IMG/VR virus record: IMGVR_UViG_3300021963_000083
Span: 20,656-84,655 of that record
Length of the DNA: 64,000 nt
Source of the DNA: a virus
Direction: 5' to 3' (one strand)
Made by a program: the position numbers and the translations under genes. The notes below the pieces were generated by a model. That model had not been told where the DNA came from, made no database searches, and saw only the letters and a list, made by a program, of their open reading frames with translations. Each line of letters starts with the position of its first letter. The stretch's first letter is position 1. Positions 56,013 through 60,789 of the stretch are shown here, piece by piece.

Positions 56013-56153
56013 ATGGTTACGCCAATACAAGCGGCCCCAATGGGCAAGACCTATCGCGTATCATCCGAAAGCGCATGGCCCTTGCGAGGACTGGACGGCA
56101 AGACCTTTGCCGAACGGCGCAAAGAAAAAGACAATGGCCCTAGCAAAAGCTAG
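56013..56153 (+). CDS. Small basic protein ending inside a terminator hairpin
   Basis: 46 residues, preceded by AAGGGAAAG. The last codons (GGC CCT AGC AAA AGC TAG) are the left arm, loop and right arm of the GGCCCTAGC/GCTAGGGCC hairpin, so coding sequence and terminator are the same bases. Function unknown. Confidence 0.5.
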   Translation: MVTPIQAAPMGKTYRVSSESAWPLRGLDGKTFAERRKEKDNGPSKS

Positions 56154-56160
56154 GGCCTAT
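56136..56160. terminator. Hairpin terminator overlapping a stop codon
   Basis: GGCCCTAGC / GCTAGGGCC with an AAAA loop. The U-tract is weak rightward (TATTGG); leftward it is followed by ATTGTCTTTTTC. It may stop both the operon and the short leftward transcript from the promoter at 56190-56219. Confidence 0.65.
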
Positions 56161-56189
56161 TGGCGCCAAAAATTTTGCACGCTACCTTA

Positions 56190-56219
56190 AATGTAGCACG
56201 TGCGACTAGGGCCTGTCAA
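56190..56219 (-). promoter_or_regulatory. Leftward promoter facing the operon end
   Basis: Leftward TTGACA (56219-56214), 18 bp, TACATT (56195-56190). The transcript would run about 50 nt through GGCGCC at 56162 into the 56136 hairpin. Confidence 0.55.
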
Positions 56220-56253
56220 TAGCATTTATTTTTTATTTTTGCGATTTTTTCTG

Positions 56254-56282
56254 TTGACACTATGGCAAGGCATTGGTAAAAG
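56254..56282 (+). promoter_or_regulatory. Rightward promoter, conserved-leader type
   Basis: TTGACA (56254-56259), 17 bp, TAAAAG (56277-56282), then the leader GTGCATCAAGACGGAAGGA at 56284 and ATG 56310. Confidence 0.8.
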
Positions 56283-56309
56283 AGTGCATCAAGACGGAAG
56301 GAAAAACAA

Positions 56310-56792
56310 ATGGCTTATGTAATTTTTGACCTCGACGGCACTGTGATTGATTCGACGCATCGCCAAGCGACTAAGGCTGATGGCTCGCTTGACCTTGACC
56401 ATTGGATTGAGCGCAACAAGCCAGAAATGATTATGCGCGATTCGCTTTTGCCATTGTCTCGCGTTATGCGTATCATCAAAGCAAACGGCCATAAGGTTAT
56501 CGTTTGCACTGCCCGCTCTTATCAAATTGCTGATGAGGAATTTTTGGCAATGCATGGCCTTGACTATGACGTTTATTTGTCACGCGCTGCTAAAGGCGAT
56601 ATGCGTGACGATGCCAGCCTTAAGGTTCAATTGCTTAATGATTACTTCACTGGCCTAGGCTTTCGGTCGGTTGAAGCTGCCAAGCCAATGATGTTTGACG
56701 ATAACCTAAAGGTTATTGATGCAATGATTGCAATTGGCGTAACTTGCTATGATGCAAAATATGCTAACCACCGCCTTGCAAAGCGCGCTTAA
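56310..56792 (+). CDS. HAD-superfamily phosphatase, polynucleotide 3'-phosphatase-like
   Basis: 160 residues. HAD motif I FDLDGTVID (residues 6-14), motif II VCTARS near 70, motif III Lys near KVQLLNDY, and motif IV MMFDDNLKV. Size and the CTARS step match the phosphatase half of T4 polynucleotide kinase. It could restore 3'-OH ends of nicked RNA or DNA. A 5'-nucleotidase role is the alternative. Followed by a strong terminator, so it is a single-gene transcript. Confidence 0.78.
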   Translation: MAYVIFDLDGTVIDSTHRQATKADGSLDLDHWIERNKPEMIMRDSLLPLSRVMRIIKANGHKVIVCTARSYQIADEEFLAMHGLDYDVYLSRAAKGDMRDDASLKVQLLNDYFTGLGFRSVEAAKPMMFDDNLKVIDAMIAIGVTCYDAKYANHRLAKRA

Positions 56793-56795
56793 GGA

Positions 56796-56830
56796 ATAGG
56801 CGGGAGCAATCCCGCCTATTTTTTTTTTAT
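56796..56830 (+). terminator. Intrinsic terminator after HAD phosphatase
   Basis: ATAGGCGGGA / TCCCGCCTAT with a GCAA loop followed by nine or more T. Confidence 0.92.
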
Positions 56831-56838
56831 TTTTCCTA

Positions 56839-56868
56839 TTGACAAGGCCAGGCCCACTATGGTATAAT
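56839..56868 (+). promoter_or_regulatory. Rightward promoter of convergent pair 1
   Basis: TTGACA (56839-56844), 18 bp, TATAAT (56863-56868). No ORF starts nearby. It faces a leftward promoter at 56924-56953. Confidence 0.85.
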
Positions 56869-56869
56869 G

Positions 56870-57000
56870 GGCTGATGCCCAAAATTCGCGCCAAAAGCGC
56901 CGAAAATTTTGCCCGCTACTACCATTATAGCACGCGCGGCTGGGTGCTGTCAATAGGGAAAATGAAAAAATGCGATGAACGGTTCGTCGCATTTTTTGGC
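56870..57000 (+). ncRNA. Candidate short noncoding transcript between promoter and hairpin terminator
   Basis: From the predicted start near 56875 to a hairpin TGCGATGA/TTCGTCGCA with a 3-nt loop (56971-56991) and ATTTTTT. About 120 nt. The beginning contains the tandem elements CGCGCCAAAA and GCGCCGAAAA. An alternative frame in frame with the downstream HTH gene also runs through here, so noncoding status is inferred. Confidence 0.4.
56924..56953 (-). promoter_or_regulatory. Leftward promoter of convergent pair 1
   Basis: Leftward TTGACA (56953-56948), 18 bp, TATAAT (56929-56924), then GGTAGTAGCGGGC and GGCGC elements. About 55 bp from the facing -10 at 56868. Confidence 0.85.
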
Positions 57001-57018
57001 GTTTGGTGTTTTTTTCTC

Positions 57019-57047
57019 TTGCAAGCTTTGCCGATTGCGTCTAATAA
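57019..57047 (+). promoter_or_regulatory. Weak rightward promoter for the first HTH paralogue
   Basis: TTGCAA (57019-57024), 17 bp, TAATAA (57042-57047), followed by TTCATCAAGAGGGG, a variant of the conserved leader. Confidence 0.5.
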
Positions 57048-57096
57048 TGGTTCATCAAGAGGGGATGGGCCTCTCCTGATAACGAAAGAAAATTTT

Positions 57097-57408
57097 ATGA
57101 CTAAGGTTGTTGAAAAGAATTACTCTGAAGCCCAAGAATCGGCTTTGCTTGCGGCTGGCGTTATTGATAACGCAAAGGCTTTGGAATTTGCCGAAAAATT
57201 CGGCAAGGATGTTCGCTCGATTCGCGCTAAGGCGGTTCGCATGGGCATTTATAAGGCACAGCCCAAGGTTTCCAAGACTGGCGGTAAAATCGAATCCAAG
57301 GAAGCGATTGCTGCCGATATTTCGGAAATCATTGGCAAGAGCCTTGAAGGTCTGGAAAAGGCCCCTAAGCTGGTTCTGCAAATTTTGCGGGAAAAGCTTT
57401 CGGCTTAA
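57097..57408 (+). CDS. HTH-domain protein, paralogue 1 (103 aa)
   Basis: 103 residues from ATG 57097. The body SEAQESALLAAGVIDNAKAL ... KFGKDVRSIRAKAVRMGIYKA is a single HTH like the third repeat of the 1157-1873 protein. The C-terminal half (IAADISEIIGKSLEGLEKAPKLVLQIL) is helical. It is of the same length as, and mostly identical in sequence to, the protein at 60064-60375. Probably a DNA-binding regulator; the promoter array around it is a plausible target. It is transcribed as its own unit with a strong terminator. Confidence 0.72.
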   Translation: MTKVVEKNYSEAQESALLAAGVIDNAKALEFAEKFGKDVRSIRAKAVRMGIYKAQPKVSKTGGKIESKEAIAADISEIIGKSLEGLEKAPKLVLQILREKLSA

Positions 57409-57430
57409 CCGATAAAATCTAAAGCCTAAC

Positions 57431-57460
57431 GGCGGGGAGAAATCCCCGCCATTTTTTTTT
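57431..57460 (+). terminator. Intrinsic terminator after HTH paralogue 1
   Basis: GGCGGGGA / TCCCCGCC with a GAAA loop followed by ATTTTTTTTT. Confidence 0.92.
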
Positions 57461-57480
57461 GTTTTTTGCAATTTTTCCTA

Positions 57481-57509
57481 TTGACAAGGCCCGACCAATA
57501 TGGTATAAT
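57481..57509 (+). promoter_or_regulatory. Rightward promoter of convergent pair 2
   Basis: TTGACA (57481-57486), 17 bp, TATAAT (57504-57509). Closely similar to pair 1 (TTGACAAGGCC ... ATGGTATAATGGG). No ORF follows before the facing promoter. Confidence 0.85.
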
Positions 57510-57554
57510 GGGGTGATGCGCTGAAGGCGCCAAAGCACCGATAGGTGCGCCGAA

Positions 57555-57583
57555 ATTATACCAGATTTCCGCGTGCCTGTCAA
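57555..57583 (-). promoter_or_regulatory. Leftward promoter of convergent pair 2
   Basis: Leftward TTGACA (57583-57578), 17 bp, TATAAT (57560-57555), followed by TTCGGCGCACC. The two -10 boxes are 45 bp apart with AAGGCGCC and GTGCGCCG between them. Confidence 0.85.
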
Positions 57584-57640
57584 GCAAAAAAATTCGATTG
57601 AACAAACTTTTTTAATCGGTTTTTTCCATCAATAAATCGC

Positions 57641-57669
57641 TTGCAATAGGGGCAGGGATTGGCTATAAA
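57641..57669 (+). promoter_or_regulatory. Rightward promoter for the three-TM protein
   Basis: TTGCAA (57641-57646), 17 bp, TATAAA (57664-57669). An ATG at 57675 is 5 nt after the -10; the better-supported start is 57696. Confidence 0.65.
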
Positions 57670-57695
57670 GAGGCATGGAAACGAAAGGAAACGAA

Positions 57696-57983
57696 ATGAA
57701 AAAAATGTTCAATAAAATCAAGGAGATGCCAAAATCCGAATTGTGCGGCTGGCTTGGCATGATACTTGTGCAATCGGCAACATTGCCTACCACAATTTCG
57801 GTTCTGCTAGGCTATAGCGACAAATTGCCGCCTATTTCTATGGTTCTGCTAGTCTGGGCTGGCTTGGCGCTTTACTTTGTCCGCGCTTTCAAGAATAAAG
57901 ATGTTCTTTATATGGTATCTAACGGATTCGGTTTTTTCGTTAATACTATTCTACTCGCCCTAATCGTTTATCCTCAATACTAA
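57696..57983 (+). CDS. Three-TM protein resembling PQ-loop/SemiSWEET transporters
   Basis: 95 residues from ATG 57696, preceded by AAAGGAAACGAA. Three TM helices (GWLGMILVQSATLPTTISVLLG; ISMVLLVWAGLALYFVRAF; LYMVSNGFGFFVNTILLALIVY). The size, three-helix plan and a LPTTISVL stretch where PQ-loop proteins carry PQ suggest SemiSWEET-like half-transporters. The signature residue differs, so this is a resemblance only. Alternative start 57675 would make a leaderless mRNA. Confidence 0.6.
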   Translation: MKKMFNKIKEMPKSELCGWLGMILVQSATLPTTISVLLGYSDKLPPISMVLLVWAGLALYFVRAFKNKDVLYMVSNGFGFFVNTILLALIVYPQY

Positions 57984-57997
57984 GGAAAGGAAAGAAA

Positions 57998-58276
57998 ATG
58001 CCTGTTACTTTCAACTCTGATACTGTCGCGTTTCTTATTCATGAGATTGACGACATTTTATCCCATGCCGATATTACTGCGGGCATGTGCGATGATTTGT
58101 CTAACTTTCTCAATGGGTTGGTCGATATAAATAAAGCTGGATCAATCGTTATTGTTCCCGATGATGATAATATCGGGGACGATTGGGACGATGATTTGGA
58201 CGGCTACCCGCCCGATGATGACGGCCCGAATTATGACGGCGGCGAGCTTGTAGGCTGGACTGTTGCCGATACCTAA
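57998..58276 (+). CDS. Acidic small protein of unknown function
   Basis: 92 residues, very acidic in the second half (PDDDNIGDDWDDDLDGYPPDDDG). Preceded by AAGGAAAGG. DNA-mimic proteins are similarly acidic and small, so inhibition of a DNA-binding host protein is possible but not shown. Ends just before a strong UUCG hairpin. Confidence 0.6.
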   Translation: MPVTFNSDTVAFLIHEIDDILSHADITAGMCDDLSNFLNGLVDINKAGSIVIVPDDDNIGDDWDDDLDGYPPDDDGPNYDGGELVGWTVADT

Positions 58277-58281
58277 AGACT

Positions 58282-58310
58282 GGGTGTGTTACTTCGGTAA
58301 CACACCCTAG
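58282..58310. terminator. UUCG-capped hairpin
   Basis: GGGTGTGTTAC / GTAACACACCC with a C(TTCG)G loop, 11-bp perfect stem. No T-run rightward (TAGCGCCG), so it may act as an mRNA 3' stabiliser or as part of the leftward transcript. Confidence 0.65.
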
Positions 58311-58337
58311 CGCCGAAAATTTTTGAACGCTACTCTA

Positions 58338-58367
58338 AGTATACCACGCAAGCGTATGGGCTGTCAA
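58338..58367 (-). promoter_or_regulatory. Leftward promoter facing the acidic-protein gene
   Basis: Leftward TTGACA (58367-58362), 18 bp, TATACT (58343-58338), then AGTAGCGTTCAAAAATTTTC and GGCGC, the same post-promoter elements as at 56190 and 56924. Confidence 0.7.
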
Positions 58368-58433
58368 CCCACAAAATGAAAAAATATGAAAAAAGTTATC
58401 CACAGCTTTCGCATTTTTTTATGTCGATTTTGT

Positions 58434-58462
58434 TTGACGGCATGGGCTGGATTTGGTAAAAG
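58434..58462 (+). promoter_or_regulatory. Rightward promoter, conserved-leader type
   Basis: TTGACG (58434-58439), 17 bp, TAAAAG (58457-58462), then GTGCATCAAGACGGAAACAA at 58464 and ATG 58496. Confidence 0.78.
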
Positions 58463-58495
58463 AGTGCATCAAGACGGAAACAAGGAAAAAACGAA

Positions 58496-59221
58496 ATGGC
58501 TGCTAAAAAATTCTTCGTCATCATTGACACGGAAACCACGCAATCGGGCATGGTTGCCGATATTGGCATTATTGTGTCTGACCGCAAGGGCAATATTCAT
58601 CATGAGGCTGGAATCCTTATTGGCGATTTTTTCTCTGACCGCGAGGCTCACCCGTTGTTTCATATCTATGGCGACAAAAACGACGTTTTTTCTGCCGAAT
58701 CGCTGCCTAAGCGTTACGCGAATTATGAACAAATGTTGCAAGATGGTCGTCGCGTTTTGGCAAGCGTTGGCGCTGTCAATCGTTTCTTGTCTAAAGTAAA
58801 GGCAAAGTATAACCCGACAATGACCGCCTATAACTTGGCTTTTGACTCTAACGTCATGGACAAAAGCGGAATTGTCGCAAACGAATTGTTCCCCGAATCG
58901 TTTTGTTTGTGGCACGCTGCTGTTGCCAAATGGGGCAATACTAGGGCGTTTAAGCAATTCGCGCTAGAAAATCACTTTTTCGGCAACCGAACAAGTAAAA
59001 CGGGCCACATGGGAATTAAAACCAACGCAGACGTTATGGCGAAATACTTGCTAGGCATGGGTTTGCCTGACGAGCCACACACTGCGCTAGAAGATGCCAA
59101 GTATTATGAGCTGCCTATACTTACCGCTCTGGTCAAGAATACTTCACCAAAAGAGTATATGTCGCCACCACCTTACAATTACCGCGCTTTTGCTGTCCGC
59201 GACCACTTCAAGGTCAAGTAA
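58496..59221 (+). CDS. DEDD-family exonuclease (RNase T/DnaQ-like)
   Basis: 241 residues. Exo I IDTETT (residues 10-15), Exo II YNLAFDSNVMD near 112-122, and Exo III with HTALEDAKY near 198-206: the His five residues before Asp indicates the DEDDh subgroup. No polymerase domain, so a free-standing DNA or RNA exonuclease. A single-gene transcript with conserved leader and terminator. Phages use such enzymes for host DNA or RNA degradation or proofreading support. Confidence 0.85.
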   Translation: MAAKKFFVIIDTETTQSGMVADIGIIVSDRKGNIHHEAGILIGDFFSDREAHPLFHIYGDKNDVFSAESLPKRYANYEQMLQDGRRVLASVGAVNRFLSKVKAKYNPTMTAYNLAFDSNVMDKSGIVANELFPESFCLWHAAVAKWGNTRAFKQFALENHFFGNRTSKTGHMGIKTNADVMAKYLLGMGLPDEPHTALEDAKYYELPILTALVKNTSPKEYMSPPPYNYRAFAVRDHFKVK

Positions 59222-59240
59222 AGGCCAAGTAAAACTAAAG

Positions 59241-59272
59241 TCCGCTCAAGTAAAACTGGGCGGATTTTTTTT
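59241..59272 (+). terminator. Intrinsic terminator after exonuclease
   Basis: TCCGCTCA / TGGGCGGA (two G-T wobbles) with an 8-nt loop followed by TTTTTTTT. Confidence 0.85.
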
Positions 59273-59293
59273 TGTCTGGGGCAATTTTTTCGC

Positions 59294-59322
59294 TTGACAC
59301 AAGAAAAAAATCCTGTTAAAAT
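59294..59322 (+). promoter_or_regulatory. Rightward promoter without a gene
   Basis: TTGACA (59294-59299), 17 bp, TAAAAT (59317-59322), followed by GCCCTGCGGGCGCCG. Runs about 90 nt into the next promoter. Confidence 0.75.
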
Positions 59323-59409
59323 GCCCTGCGGGCGCCGAAATTTTTGTTCACGTTTTGTTCCATGCCGCGCTAGGGCGAGAATTATTTTTCGGATGGCGAT
59401 TTTTTCTAT

Positions 59410-59438
59410 TGACAAGGCCGCTGGACTCTGCTATAATG
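59410..59438 (+). promoter_or_regulatory. Rightward promoter of convergent pair 3
   Basis: TTGACA (59410-59415), 17 bp, TATAAT (59433-59438), followed by two GCGCCGA elements and the facing promoter. Confidence 0.85.
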
Positions 59439-59470
59439 GGTTTGATAGCGCCGAAATTGGCCTGGCGCCG

Positions 59471-59499
59471 ATTTTAGCAGGATTCGCCGCGCTTGTCAA
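59471..59499 (-). promoter_or_regulatory. Leftward promoter of convergent pair 3
   Basis: Leftward TTGACA (59499-59494), 17 bp, TAAAAT (59476-59471), directly followed by CGGCGCC. The two -10 boxes are 32 bp apart. Confidence 0.82.
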
Positions 59500-59548
59500 G
59501 AGAAAAAATTTTCTGGACGCAATTATTCTGGGCGCGATAAATGATATT

Positions 59549-59695
59549 ATGTTAAATGAAAAAACGTATTGGAATCAATCACTTAGGGCGGCTGGGGCTG
59601 ATAAATGGCGTTATGTTAAATGCGTGATACGATATATCATCACCAATGATATGTTATATCATCTCATGAGGCTTATTGATAATGATTCGCAATAG
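59549..59695 (+). CDS. Weak 48-codon ORF
   Basis: MLNEKTYWNQSLRAAGADKW... Downstream of the 59410 promoter but no Shine-Dalgarno and no family. Protein-like composition is the only support. Could be chance. Confidence 0.22.
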   Translation: MLNEKTYWNQSLRAAGADKWRYVKCVIRYIITNDMLYHLMRLIDNDSQ

Positions 59696-59708
59696 CAGCG
59701 CTATTGCG
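59688..59708. other. 9-bp perfect hairpin with three-base loop
   Basis: CGCAATAGC-AGC-GCTATTGCG. No U-run on either side. It ends in GCGCC and lies within the leftward transcript of the 59750-59778 promoter. Confidence 0.6.
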
Positions 59709-59749
59709 CCAGAGTGCAAAATAAACAAGTGCTAAAATTACGTGCGCCA

Positions 59750-59778
59750 ATTATAGTGCGAAAATTACAGGTTGTCAA
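59750..59778 (-). promoter_or_regulatory. Leftward promoter, GGCGC type
   Basis: Leftward TTGACA (59778-59773), 17 bp ending TTTTCGCAC, TATAAT (59755-59750), then TGGCGCACG. Confidence 0.85.
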
Positions 59779-59845
59779 GCGATTTTTTTTTTGGTTAGCG
59801 AAAAAATTTATTTTAACCTATTTGGTTAAAGCGCGCAGCGCCAAA

Positions 59846-59874
59846 AGTATAGTGCAAATTTGACCCGCTGTCAA
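59846..59874 (-). promoter_or_regulatory. Leftward promoter, GGCGC type
   Basis: Leftward TTGACA (59874-59869), 17 bp ending AATTTGCAC, TATACT (59851-59846), then TTTGGCGCTGCGCGC. Confidence 0.82.
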
Positions 59875-59917
59875 GTGAAAAATTTGCATGTGGCCGGAGC
59901 AGATGCAAAAATTGCAC

Positions 59918-59946
59918 TTGACCGGCCCACCCCTTTCCGCTATAAA
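59918..59946 (+). promoter_or_regulatory. Rightward promoter upstream of HTH paralogue 2
   Basis: TTGACC (59918-59923), 17 bp, TATAAA (59941-59946). The transcript carries GGAAGGGAGAGGG and ATG 59970, which is in frame with the HTH gene and would add 31 residues. Confidence 0.7.
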
Positions 59947-60003
59947 GGATGGGTCGGAAGGGAGAGGGAAATGCAAATTATTTCAACGCTGAAAAAATTG
60001 TTC

Positions 60004-60032
60004 TTGACTTCTCTGTCCGATCTAGGTATAAT
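60004..60032 (+). promoter_or_regulatory. Main rightward promoter of HTH paralogue 2
   Basis: TTGACT (60004-60009), 17 bp, TATAAT (60027-60032), then ATCATCAAGACACGGAAGGG, a variant of the conserved leader, and ATG 60064. Confidence 0.85.
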
Positions 60033-60063
60033 CAATCATCAAGACACGGAAGGGAACATTGAT

Positions 60064-60375
60064 ATGACTAAGGAAGTTGTGAAGAACTACTCGGAAGCGC
60101 AAGAAGCCGAAATGCTGGCTGCTGGCGTTATCGACAACGACGCTGCGATTGAGTTCGCTGCGAAGTTCGGTAAGGACGTTCGTTCTATCCGCGCTAAGGC
60201 TGTCCGTATGGGCATCTACAAAGCTAAGGACAAGGTGTCCAAGAGCGGTGCTCCTATTGAGCGCAAGGAAGAAATTGTTGCGGACATCGCAGCAATCATC
60301 GGCAAGAACCTCGACGGCCTCGAAAAGGCTCCTAAGCAGGTTCTCGTTGCGTTGCGTACTCGCTTGAGTGCGTAA
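60064..60375 (+). CDS. HTH-domain protein, paralogue 2 (103 aa)
   Basis: 103 residues from ATG 60064. Same fold and length as 57097-57408: KNYSEAQEAEMLAAGVIDND..., FGKDVRSIRAKAVRMGIYKA, then AIIGKNLDGLEKAPKQVL. The two proteins are highly similar while codons differ (this copy is more GC-rich), so the duplication is old or one copy was acquired. Two promoters, at 59918 and 60004, could give two N-terminal forms. Likely a DNA-binding regulator of unknown targets. Confidence 0.75.
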   Translation: MTKEVVKNYSEAQEAEMLAAGVIDNDAAIEFAAKFGKDVRSIRAKAVRMGIYKAKDKVSKSGAPIERKEEIVADIAAIIGKNLDGLEKAPKQVLVALRTRLSA

Positions 60376-60577
60376 CTAATAGGAAGGGGCGAGAGGGCAG
60401 ATAGCTTTCACACCCCCTTCCGAAAGCCTACAGTACACGACCGGCTCCCGCCGAGTACCAGTTATTCACCCTAGGTTGTATATAACTGAGTCTCCACACG
60501 GATCGGCTAAGTACGAAATAAGCCTGCTACCAGCCCATCTGGTAGCAGGCTTTTTTGCGTCCGCCTGCGGCGCCAAA
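60376..60577 (+). other. Untranslated 3' region of HTH paralogue 2
   Basis: Starts with a GGAAGGGG/CCCCTTCC stem (60382-60421) enclosing a 24-nt loop and ends in the strong terminator at 60521. About 100 nt between them (60422-60520) show no ORF and no promoter. It may be a structured 3' UTR or processed sRNA. Confidence 0.45.
60521..60556. terminator. Strong, probably bidirectional terminator
   Basis: AGCCTGCTACCAG / CTGGTAGCAGGCT with a short loop, TTTTTT on the right and an AAATA tract on the left. It would stop the HTH transcript rightward and the three tandem leftward transcripts from 60.58-60.79 kb. Confidence 0.88.
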
Positions 60578-60606
60578 ATTATAGTGGAAAATCGACGTGA
60601 AGTCAA
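60578..60606 (-). promoter_or_regulatory. Leftward promoter, tandem unit 1
   Basis: Leftward TTGACT (60606-60601), 17 bp, TATAAT (60583-60578), TTTGGCGCC follows. About 20 nt to the terminator stem. Confidence 0.85.
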
Positions 60607-60668
60607 GACAAATTTTTAGCAGCCCTGCGCGTTCCACCGCGCAAACTCGCACCCGCCCAGGGGCGCCG

Positions 60669-60697
60669 ATTATAGTGGCAAATCAATGCAAAGTCAA
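60669..60697 (-). promoter_or_regulatory. Leftward promoter, tandem unit 2
   Basis: Leftward TTGACT (60697-60692), 17 bp, TATAAT (60674-60669), CGGCGCC follows. Confidence 0.85.
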
Positions 60698-60760
60698 GTC
60701 AAATTTTTTAAGCCCTGCCACATCTACACCCAGAAACATCCAAATCGCCAAAAGGCGCCG

Positions 60761-60789
60761 ATTATAGTGGCAAATCAACACCCTGTCAA
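60761..60789 (-). promoter_or_regulatory. Leftward promoter, tandem unit 3
   Basis: Leftward TTGACA (60789-60784), 17 bp, TATAAT (60766-60761), CGGCGCC follows. It is divergent from the rightward promoter at 60833, with about 44 bp between the -35 boxes. Confidence 0.85.

What the first reader, a model, noticed from the sequence alone, without database searches (positions are those of the whole stretch)
56839..59499. Face-to-face consensus promoters with no gene between them
Pairs at 56839/56953, 57481/57583 and 59410/59499 place two sigma70 promoters 30-55 bp apart at their -10 boxes, aimed at each other, around GGCGCC or GCGCCGAAAATTTT elements. Polymerases fired from both would collide or make complementary short RNAs. 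Such a repeated arrangement is unlikely by chance. Ideas: RNA polymerase or sigma decoys, antisense insulation between single-gene units, R-loop priming of replication, or targets of the two HTH paralogues located beside them.
Basis: partly seen in the sequence, partly recalled or inferred. Interest (0 to 1): 0.85.

Follow-up and report, generated by a model that had tools for sequence, protein, structure and literature searches.

The report
Conserved face-to-face promoters before phage genes
A virus of bacteria, distantly related to phage T5, carries pairs of near-perfect promoters aimed at each other just upstream of small genes; the pairing is kept by evolution in at least six lineages, and the most likely use is that RNA polymerase at the antisense promoter gates transcription arriving from upstream.

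Summary
Three convergent pairs of 11-12/12 sigma70 promoters, both with an extended -10, lie at 56839/56953, 57481/57583 and 59409/59499. Shuffles give none. The pairs are syntenic in six lineages: in 15 pairs the hexamers are 97% identical and the spacers 43%. T5 and two other classical relatives lack them. They are not gene-free oddities: each sits 50-144 bp upstream of a co-directional gene.

The constant element is the antisense promoter with a GGCGC core. The sense promoter lies either upstream of it ('pair'; preceding gene ends in a hairpin plus T-tract, and the next gene often lacks another good promoter) or downstream ('solitary'; preceding gene ends in a hairpin without T-tract, abutting the core).

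Best explanation: antisense-promoter gating by promoter occlusion and collision, resembling the tested convergent promoters of Bacillus helD/pps and phage 186/P2 switches, but serially repeated, with start sites mostly closer. Conserved small-RNA structure was not supported; decoy and replication-priming readings have no positive evidence. A similar GC-core class occurs in unrelated AT-rich phages. New variant of a known kind; function inferred, untested.

The parts
56839..56868 (+). pair 1 sense promoter TTGACA-N18-TATAAT (TGn)
   Evidence: conserved in L010, L011, L012, L058
56869..56923 (.). pair 1 core, 55 bp, with GCGCCGAAAATTTT at 56897
56924..56953 (-). pair 1 antisense promoter TTGACA-N18-TATAAT (TGn)
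57481..57509 (+). pair 2 sense promoter TTGACA-N17-TATAAT (TGn)
57510..57554 (.). pair 2 core, 45 bp, GGCGCC at 57526
57555..57583 (-). pair 2 antisense promoter TTGACA-N17-TATAAT (TGn)
59409..59437 (+). pair 3 sense promoter TTGACA-N17-TATAAT (TGn)
59438..59470 (.). pair 3 core, 33 bp, GGCGCC at 59464
59471..59499 (-). pair 3 antisense promoter TTGACA-N17-TAAAAT (11/12, TGn)
56190..56219 (-). solitary antisense promoter (10/12) with core GGCGCC at 56162
58338..58367 (-). solitary antisense promoter (11/12) with core AGCGCCGAAAATTTTT
59750..59778 (-). solitary antisense promoter (12/12) with GGCGC
59846..59874 (-). solitary antisense promoter (11/12) with GGCGC
60578..60606 (-). solitary antisense promoter (11/12) with GGCGCC
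60669..60697 (-). solitary antisense promoter (11/12) with GGCGCC
60761..60789 (-). solitary antisense promoter (12/12) with GGCGCC
59294..59322 (+). solitary sense promoter TTGACA-N17-TAAAAT followed by GGCGCC (59331)
56791..56824 (+). intrinsic terminator with T-tract of the gene before pair 1
57431..57450 (+). intrinsic terminator with T-tract of the gene before pair 2
56136..56157 (+). hairpin without T-tract abutting the core of the solitary promoter at 56219
58282..58307 (+). UUCG hairpin without T-tract abutting the core of the solitary promoter at 58367
57097..57408 (+). gene after pair 1: putative DNA-binding protein HTH1 (paralogue of HTH2, 75% identical)
57675..57983 (+). gene after pair 2: small protein, apparently membrane-bound (judged by eye)
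59549..59695 (+). gene after pair 3: 48-aa ORF, conserved in L011 and L012
60064..60375 (+). HTH2, paralogue used to find relatives

Best explanation
The pairs are leader-region gates for the next gene. The sense promoter (P1) drives the downstream gene; an equally consensus antisense promoter (-P) fires back at it. By estimate (start site 7 nt after each -10) the two start sites are 21-43 bp apart, so in most pairs RNA polymerase can hold only one promoter at a time, and an elongating polymerase from one meets a polymerase bound at the other. -P has no gene; its job is to occlude P1 and to block or collide with sense polymerases, so output of the gene depends on how much active host sigma70 polymerase there is, and could rise when the phage poisons, modifies or depletes it. 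In solitary units the same -P and GGCGC core face read-through from the preceding gene, whose hairpin lacks a T-tract, while the next gene has its own promoter on the far side; there -P would act as a head-on block at the gene boundary. Shown: anatomy, conservation of both promoters, placement, the two layouts. Inferred: initiation in vivo, occlusion, sensing of active polymerase, role of the GGCGC core.
For: Both promoters of a pair are under selection: 15 pairs in six lineages, hexamers 97% and spacers 43% identical, TGn in all. Same gene slots, although neighbouring proteins are mostly only 48-91% identical. The sense promoter points at a co-directional gene, with no strong terminator in between except in window pair 1. 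The genes after pairs 2 and 3, and after pair 1 in the window and L010, have no internal promoter better than shuffles (after pair 1 in L011 and L012 there is one), whereas nearly all genes after solitary -P do. The gene before a pair ends in a T-tract terminator in the p1/p2 units; before a solitary -P it ends in a hairpin without T-tract in about 12 of 13. The slot after the kinase-phosphatase gene is a pair in most lineages but a T-less hairpin plus solitary -P in L014, as if the layouts can substitute. Tested precedent: two convergent promoters 39 bp apart, antisense represses sense, relieved when polymerase is poisoned (PMC12802891).
Against: No transcription data. In helD the antisense promoter escapes faster than the sense one; here both are near-consensus and relative strength cannot be read from sequence. 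Cutting the helD start-site distance by 17 bp (to about 22 bp) abolished rifampicin induction, and several phage pairs are that close, so the helD sensing step may not carry over. Three -P in tandem after HTH2 (60606, 60697, 60789) are more than a gate needs. Pair 1 in the window has an intrinsic terminator between the pair and HTH1.
Confidence: 0.45

Rival explanations
1. Boundary insulator: -P mainly terminates or blocks read-through from the preceding gene by head-on polymerase block, so each single-gene cassette is transcribed alone; the sense promoter of a pair protects the preceding gene from antisense RNA in the same way.
For: Elements sit between the end of one gene and the start of the next; solitary units follow hairpins without T-tract; the same order (terminator, GC hairpin, antisense promoter, next promoter) is seen in unrelated AT-rich phages.
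Against: Pairs already have a strong intrinsic terminator upstream and several downstream genes lack another good promoter, so pairs are unlikely to be pure insulators.
Confidence: 0.25
2. Paired antisense RNA control: the two RNAs share complementary 5' ends and regulate each other as in IS10 RNA-IN/RNA-OUT or ColE1 RNAI/RNAII.
For: Start sites 21-43 bp apart give complementary 5' ends; some antisense RNAs could end at +115 to +123 on the reversed terminator of the preceding gene; GC-rich hairpin cores in AT-rich phages.
Against: No consistent fold of core or RNAs in this clade, no Rfam family at gathering score, core sequence drifts between orthologous pairs.
Confidence: 0.12
3. Sigma70 polymerase decoy: many near-perfect sites titrate host polymerase.
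For: Extended-consensus sites in high density.
Against: Only about a dozen per genome copy in this region; fixed placement, pairing and orientation relative to genes would not be needed for titration.
Confidence: 0.07
4. R-loop primed replication origins.
For: A TTATCCACA box at 58396, also at L011 5966 and L012 8938 in the same slot.
Against: At least ten sites per genome; the DnaA-type box is not at the three pairs and is missing in L010, L014 and L058.
Confidence: 0.04
5. Operators for the HTH1/HTH2 proteins at the GGCGC core.
For: GGCGC-core promoters also occur in about half of the loci of distant HTH relatives; HTH2 weakly matches a DNA-binding family.
Against: Binding not testable here; kinship of the phages alone could explain the co-occurrence. 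Compatible with the best explanation rather than exclusive.
Confidence: 0.07

Closest known systems
helD/pps two-convergent-promoter system of Bacillus subtilis (PMC12802891)
   Same: Two face-to-face housekeeping-sigma promoters upstream of a gene, start sites 39 bp apart, extended -10 on the antisense side, antisense RNA without a gene, terminator of the preceding gene also able to end the antisense RNA.
   Different: Here in a phage, repeated at several genes, near-perfect consensus on both sides, start sites often closer (21-43 bp by estimate), GGCGCC core, solitary antisense variants; response to polymerase inhibition untested.
Phage 186 pR/pL and P2 Pe/Pc face-to-face promoters (own knowledge; 186 is cited in PMC12802891)
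   Same: Convergent phage promoters with transcriptional interference.
   Different: There each promoter drives a gene outward and forms a lysis-lysogeny switch; here only the sense side has a gene and no lysogeny module was seen in the part read.
PeSL mobile regulatory cassettes of T4-type phages (own knowledge; the paper itself is not held)
   Same: Intergenic promoter plus stem-loop units between small genes in a variable region.
   Different: PeSLs carry a sense promoter; the defining part here is an antisense promoter.

Membership tests
helD/pps-type dual convergent promoter | two convergent housekeeping-sigma promoters in an intergenic region within 300 bp of a downstream gene | tested here: met
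   genes start 50-144 bp beyond the antisense promoter
helD/pps-type dual convergent promoter | distance of promoters in the published search range (45-55 between -10s in B. subtilis, 45-100 in the wider search) | tested here: inconclusive
   gaps 33-55, only some within the range
helD/pps-type dual convergent promoter | antisense promoter stronger and faster to escape than the sense promoter | not testable with these tools
   needs in vitro transcription
helD/pps-type dual convergent promoter | sense transcription induced when RNA polymerase is inhibited | not testable with these tools
   needs expression assays
P2/186-type face-to-face switch | each promoter drives its own gene on opposite sides | tested here: not met
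   the antisense promoter faces into the preceding + strand gene
PeSL cassette | sense early promoter with stem-loop between genes of a variable region | tested here: inconclusive
   sense promoters and hairpins present, but the antisense promoter is the constant part
Antisense RNA pair (IS10 / ColE1 type) | stable, conserved structured antisense RNA | tested here: not met
   no consistent fold in this clade; no Rfam match at gathering score

The most novel reading that the evidence does not exclude
The antisense promoter with GGCGC core is a reusable head-on polymerase block that replaces the U-tract of a terminator at some gene ends and, when a sense promoter is put in front of it, becomes a polymerase-sensing gate for the next gene: one part with two uses, evolved in this T5-related clade and, with GC-hairpin cores, in unrelated AT-rich phages.
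Probability: 0.2. Interest if true: 0.75.

Novelty: new variant of a known kind. Interest (0 to 1): 0.55.

Why it matters
If true, phages use RNA polymerase itself, parked on a useless-looking antisense promoter, as terminator and timer of small genes, with no dedicated regulator. It would extend an experimentally proven bacterial antibiotic sensor (helD/pps) to virus gene control and explain why annotation finds perfect promoters with no gene behind them.

Tried and rejected
Rfam search of the region: only sub-threshold hits. tRNA genes downstream of the antisense promoters: none in the window; tRNAs lie in the left 20 kb. RNA folds of cores and of the first 60 nt on both strands: no consistent structure. 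Named phages by DNA similarity: no match; T5, AhSzq-1 and vB_ValS_X1 lack the pairs. T5 nick motif RGCGC: present in the cores but also frequent on both strands outside the region, 40 and 57 sites in the first 50 kb, so no link claimed. DnaA-type boxes: not tied to the pairs. Paper searches gave no description of such repeated pairs in phages; only open-licence papers are held.

Full report
What the window is. The window is bases 20656-84655 of an 84,655-base virus record. Its DNA polymerase and terminase are 44-48% identical to those of Demerecviridae (T5-like) phages such as Aeromonas phage AhSzq-1 and Vibrio phage vB_ValS_X1, with no DNA-level match to named phages. The finding lies in a stretch of small + strand genes to the right of the - strand structural genes.

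The observation. Five of the six promoters match 12/12 and one 11/12, with 17-18 bp spacers and TGn before the -10. The held parts of the genome contain 24 promoters of at least 11/12 against 1.3 in dinucleotide shuffles, and 3 convergent pairs against none in 200 shuffles. The motif GCGCC[AG]A... occurs 14 times in the window, all within 56157-60755 and 13 of them in one orientation. Seven more - strand promoters with a GGCGC core stand alone.

Conservation. Relatives of the neighbouring HTH2 protein were sought in IMG/VR. L009 is nearly identical to the window. L010, L011, L012/L013, L058 and L014 are diverged, yet keep pairs in the same slots: after the kinase-phosphatase gene (p1), after HTH1 (p2) and after the exonuclease-like gene (p3). 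Over 15 pairs, -35 and -10 hexamers are 97% identical between lineages and spacers 43%; invariant alignment columns are mostly the two promoters, TG, GCGCC and a T-rich stretch upstream of the sense -35. T5, AhSzq-1 and vB_ValS_X1 have no match to the pattern; Proteus phage PM135 and Erwinia phage KEY have one or two matches to this looser pattern, which does not ask for the antisense -35, and those are AT-rich inside and unlike the pairs here. The record behind L014 overlaps itself at its ends, so it is probably a complete genome of about 99 kb.

Two layouts around one constant part. The constant part is the antisense promoter (-P) with its core. In pairs, the preceding gene ends in a hairpin with a T-tract, then come the sense promoter, the core and -P, then the next gene. 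In solitary units the preceding gene ends in a hairpin without T-tract that abuts the core (about 12 of 13 units listed), then -P, then a promoter of the next gene. Genes after p2 and p3 have no internal promoter that beats shuffles; those after solitary -P nearly all do (mononucleotide shuffles, short intervals, small numbers). The p1 slot is a pair in most lineages and a T-less hairpin with solitary -P in L014. This is why I read the pairs as leaders of the downstream gene rather than as gene-less curiosities.

Mechanism. With start sites placed 7 nt after each -10, the sites of a pair are 21-43 bp apart. Polymerase covers about 20 bp downstream of its start (established knowledge), so in most pairs both promoters cannot be held at once. 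The nearest tested system is upstream of helD and pps in Bacillus subtilis: two convergent promoters, start sites 39 bp apart, the antisense one stronger and repressing the sense one, repression lifted when polymerase is poisoned by rifampicin, and lost when the distance is cut by 17 bp (PMC12802891). By analogy, -P should occlude or collide with sense polymerase, and the gene's output should depend on the supply of active host polymerase, which a phage changes during infection. The last step is inference. The closer spacing of many phage pairs puts them in the occlusion range, so they may dampen or time expression without behaving like helD.

Wider distribution. Viral pairs fall into a GC-core class, with gaps peaking at 36-39 bp and usually a gene on one side at most, and an AT-core class, often with genes on both sides like P2/186 switches. 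The window belongs with the first. In several AT-rich phage records (G007, G011, G012) a GC-rich hairpin is flanked by the two promoters or followed by a lone antisense promoter at gene boundaries. A stricter pattern gives 46 convergent stretches against at least 120 divergent ones, so the convergent layout is uncommon but not unique.

What was not supported. No conserved RNA structure in this clade, no Rfam family at gathering score, no consistent terminator for the sense RNA, no tie to DnaA-type boxes. Sigma70 decoy and replication priming remain possible but have no positive evidence.

Limits. Promoters are predicted from consensus, with no transcript data. Relatives are metagenomic contigs. 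Part of the layout evidence rests on small counts and on a simple ORF and promoter scorer.

Noticed in passing
L274, L275, L276 (records G011, G007, G012): AT-rich phages with a 12/12 promoter in front of most single genes, and antisense promoters followed at once by GC-rich hairpins with different stem sequences at cassette boundaries; G011 also has a repeated dyad TTGCACAAA...TTTGTGCAA next to them.
   Followed up: partly
window 58396; L011 5966; L012 8938: A perfect TTATCCACA (DnaA-type) box in the leader of the exonuclease-like gene, conserved in three lineages and absent in L010, L014, L058.
   Followed up: partly
L204, L224, L225, L226, L232, L241, L250, L254, L260: Ruminococcus and related genomes share convergent promoter pairs around a conserved core like TGTATCAATATGGAA; another family (e.g. 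L208, L216, L265) has a CATAAC-GTTATG palindrome in the core.
   Followed up: no
window 57510-57554 and L012 7557-7601: The core of window pair 2 resembles L012 pair 1, a different slot, more than its own slot elsewhere, which suggests exchange of elements between slots.
   Followed up: no
L015, L016, L019, L021, L023, L025, L029: GGCGC-core antisense promoters also occur within about 4 kb of distant HTH homologues.
   Followed up: partly
L282 and L283 (record G005): The ends of the 98,999-base record overlap, so this relative is probably a complete genome.
   Followed up: partly
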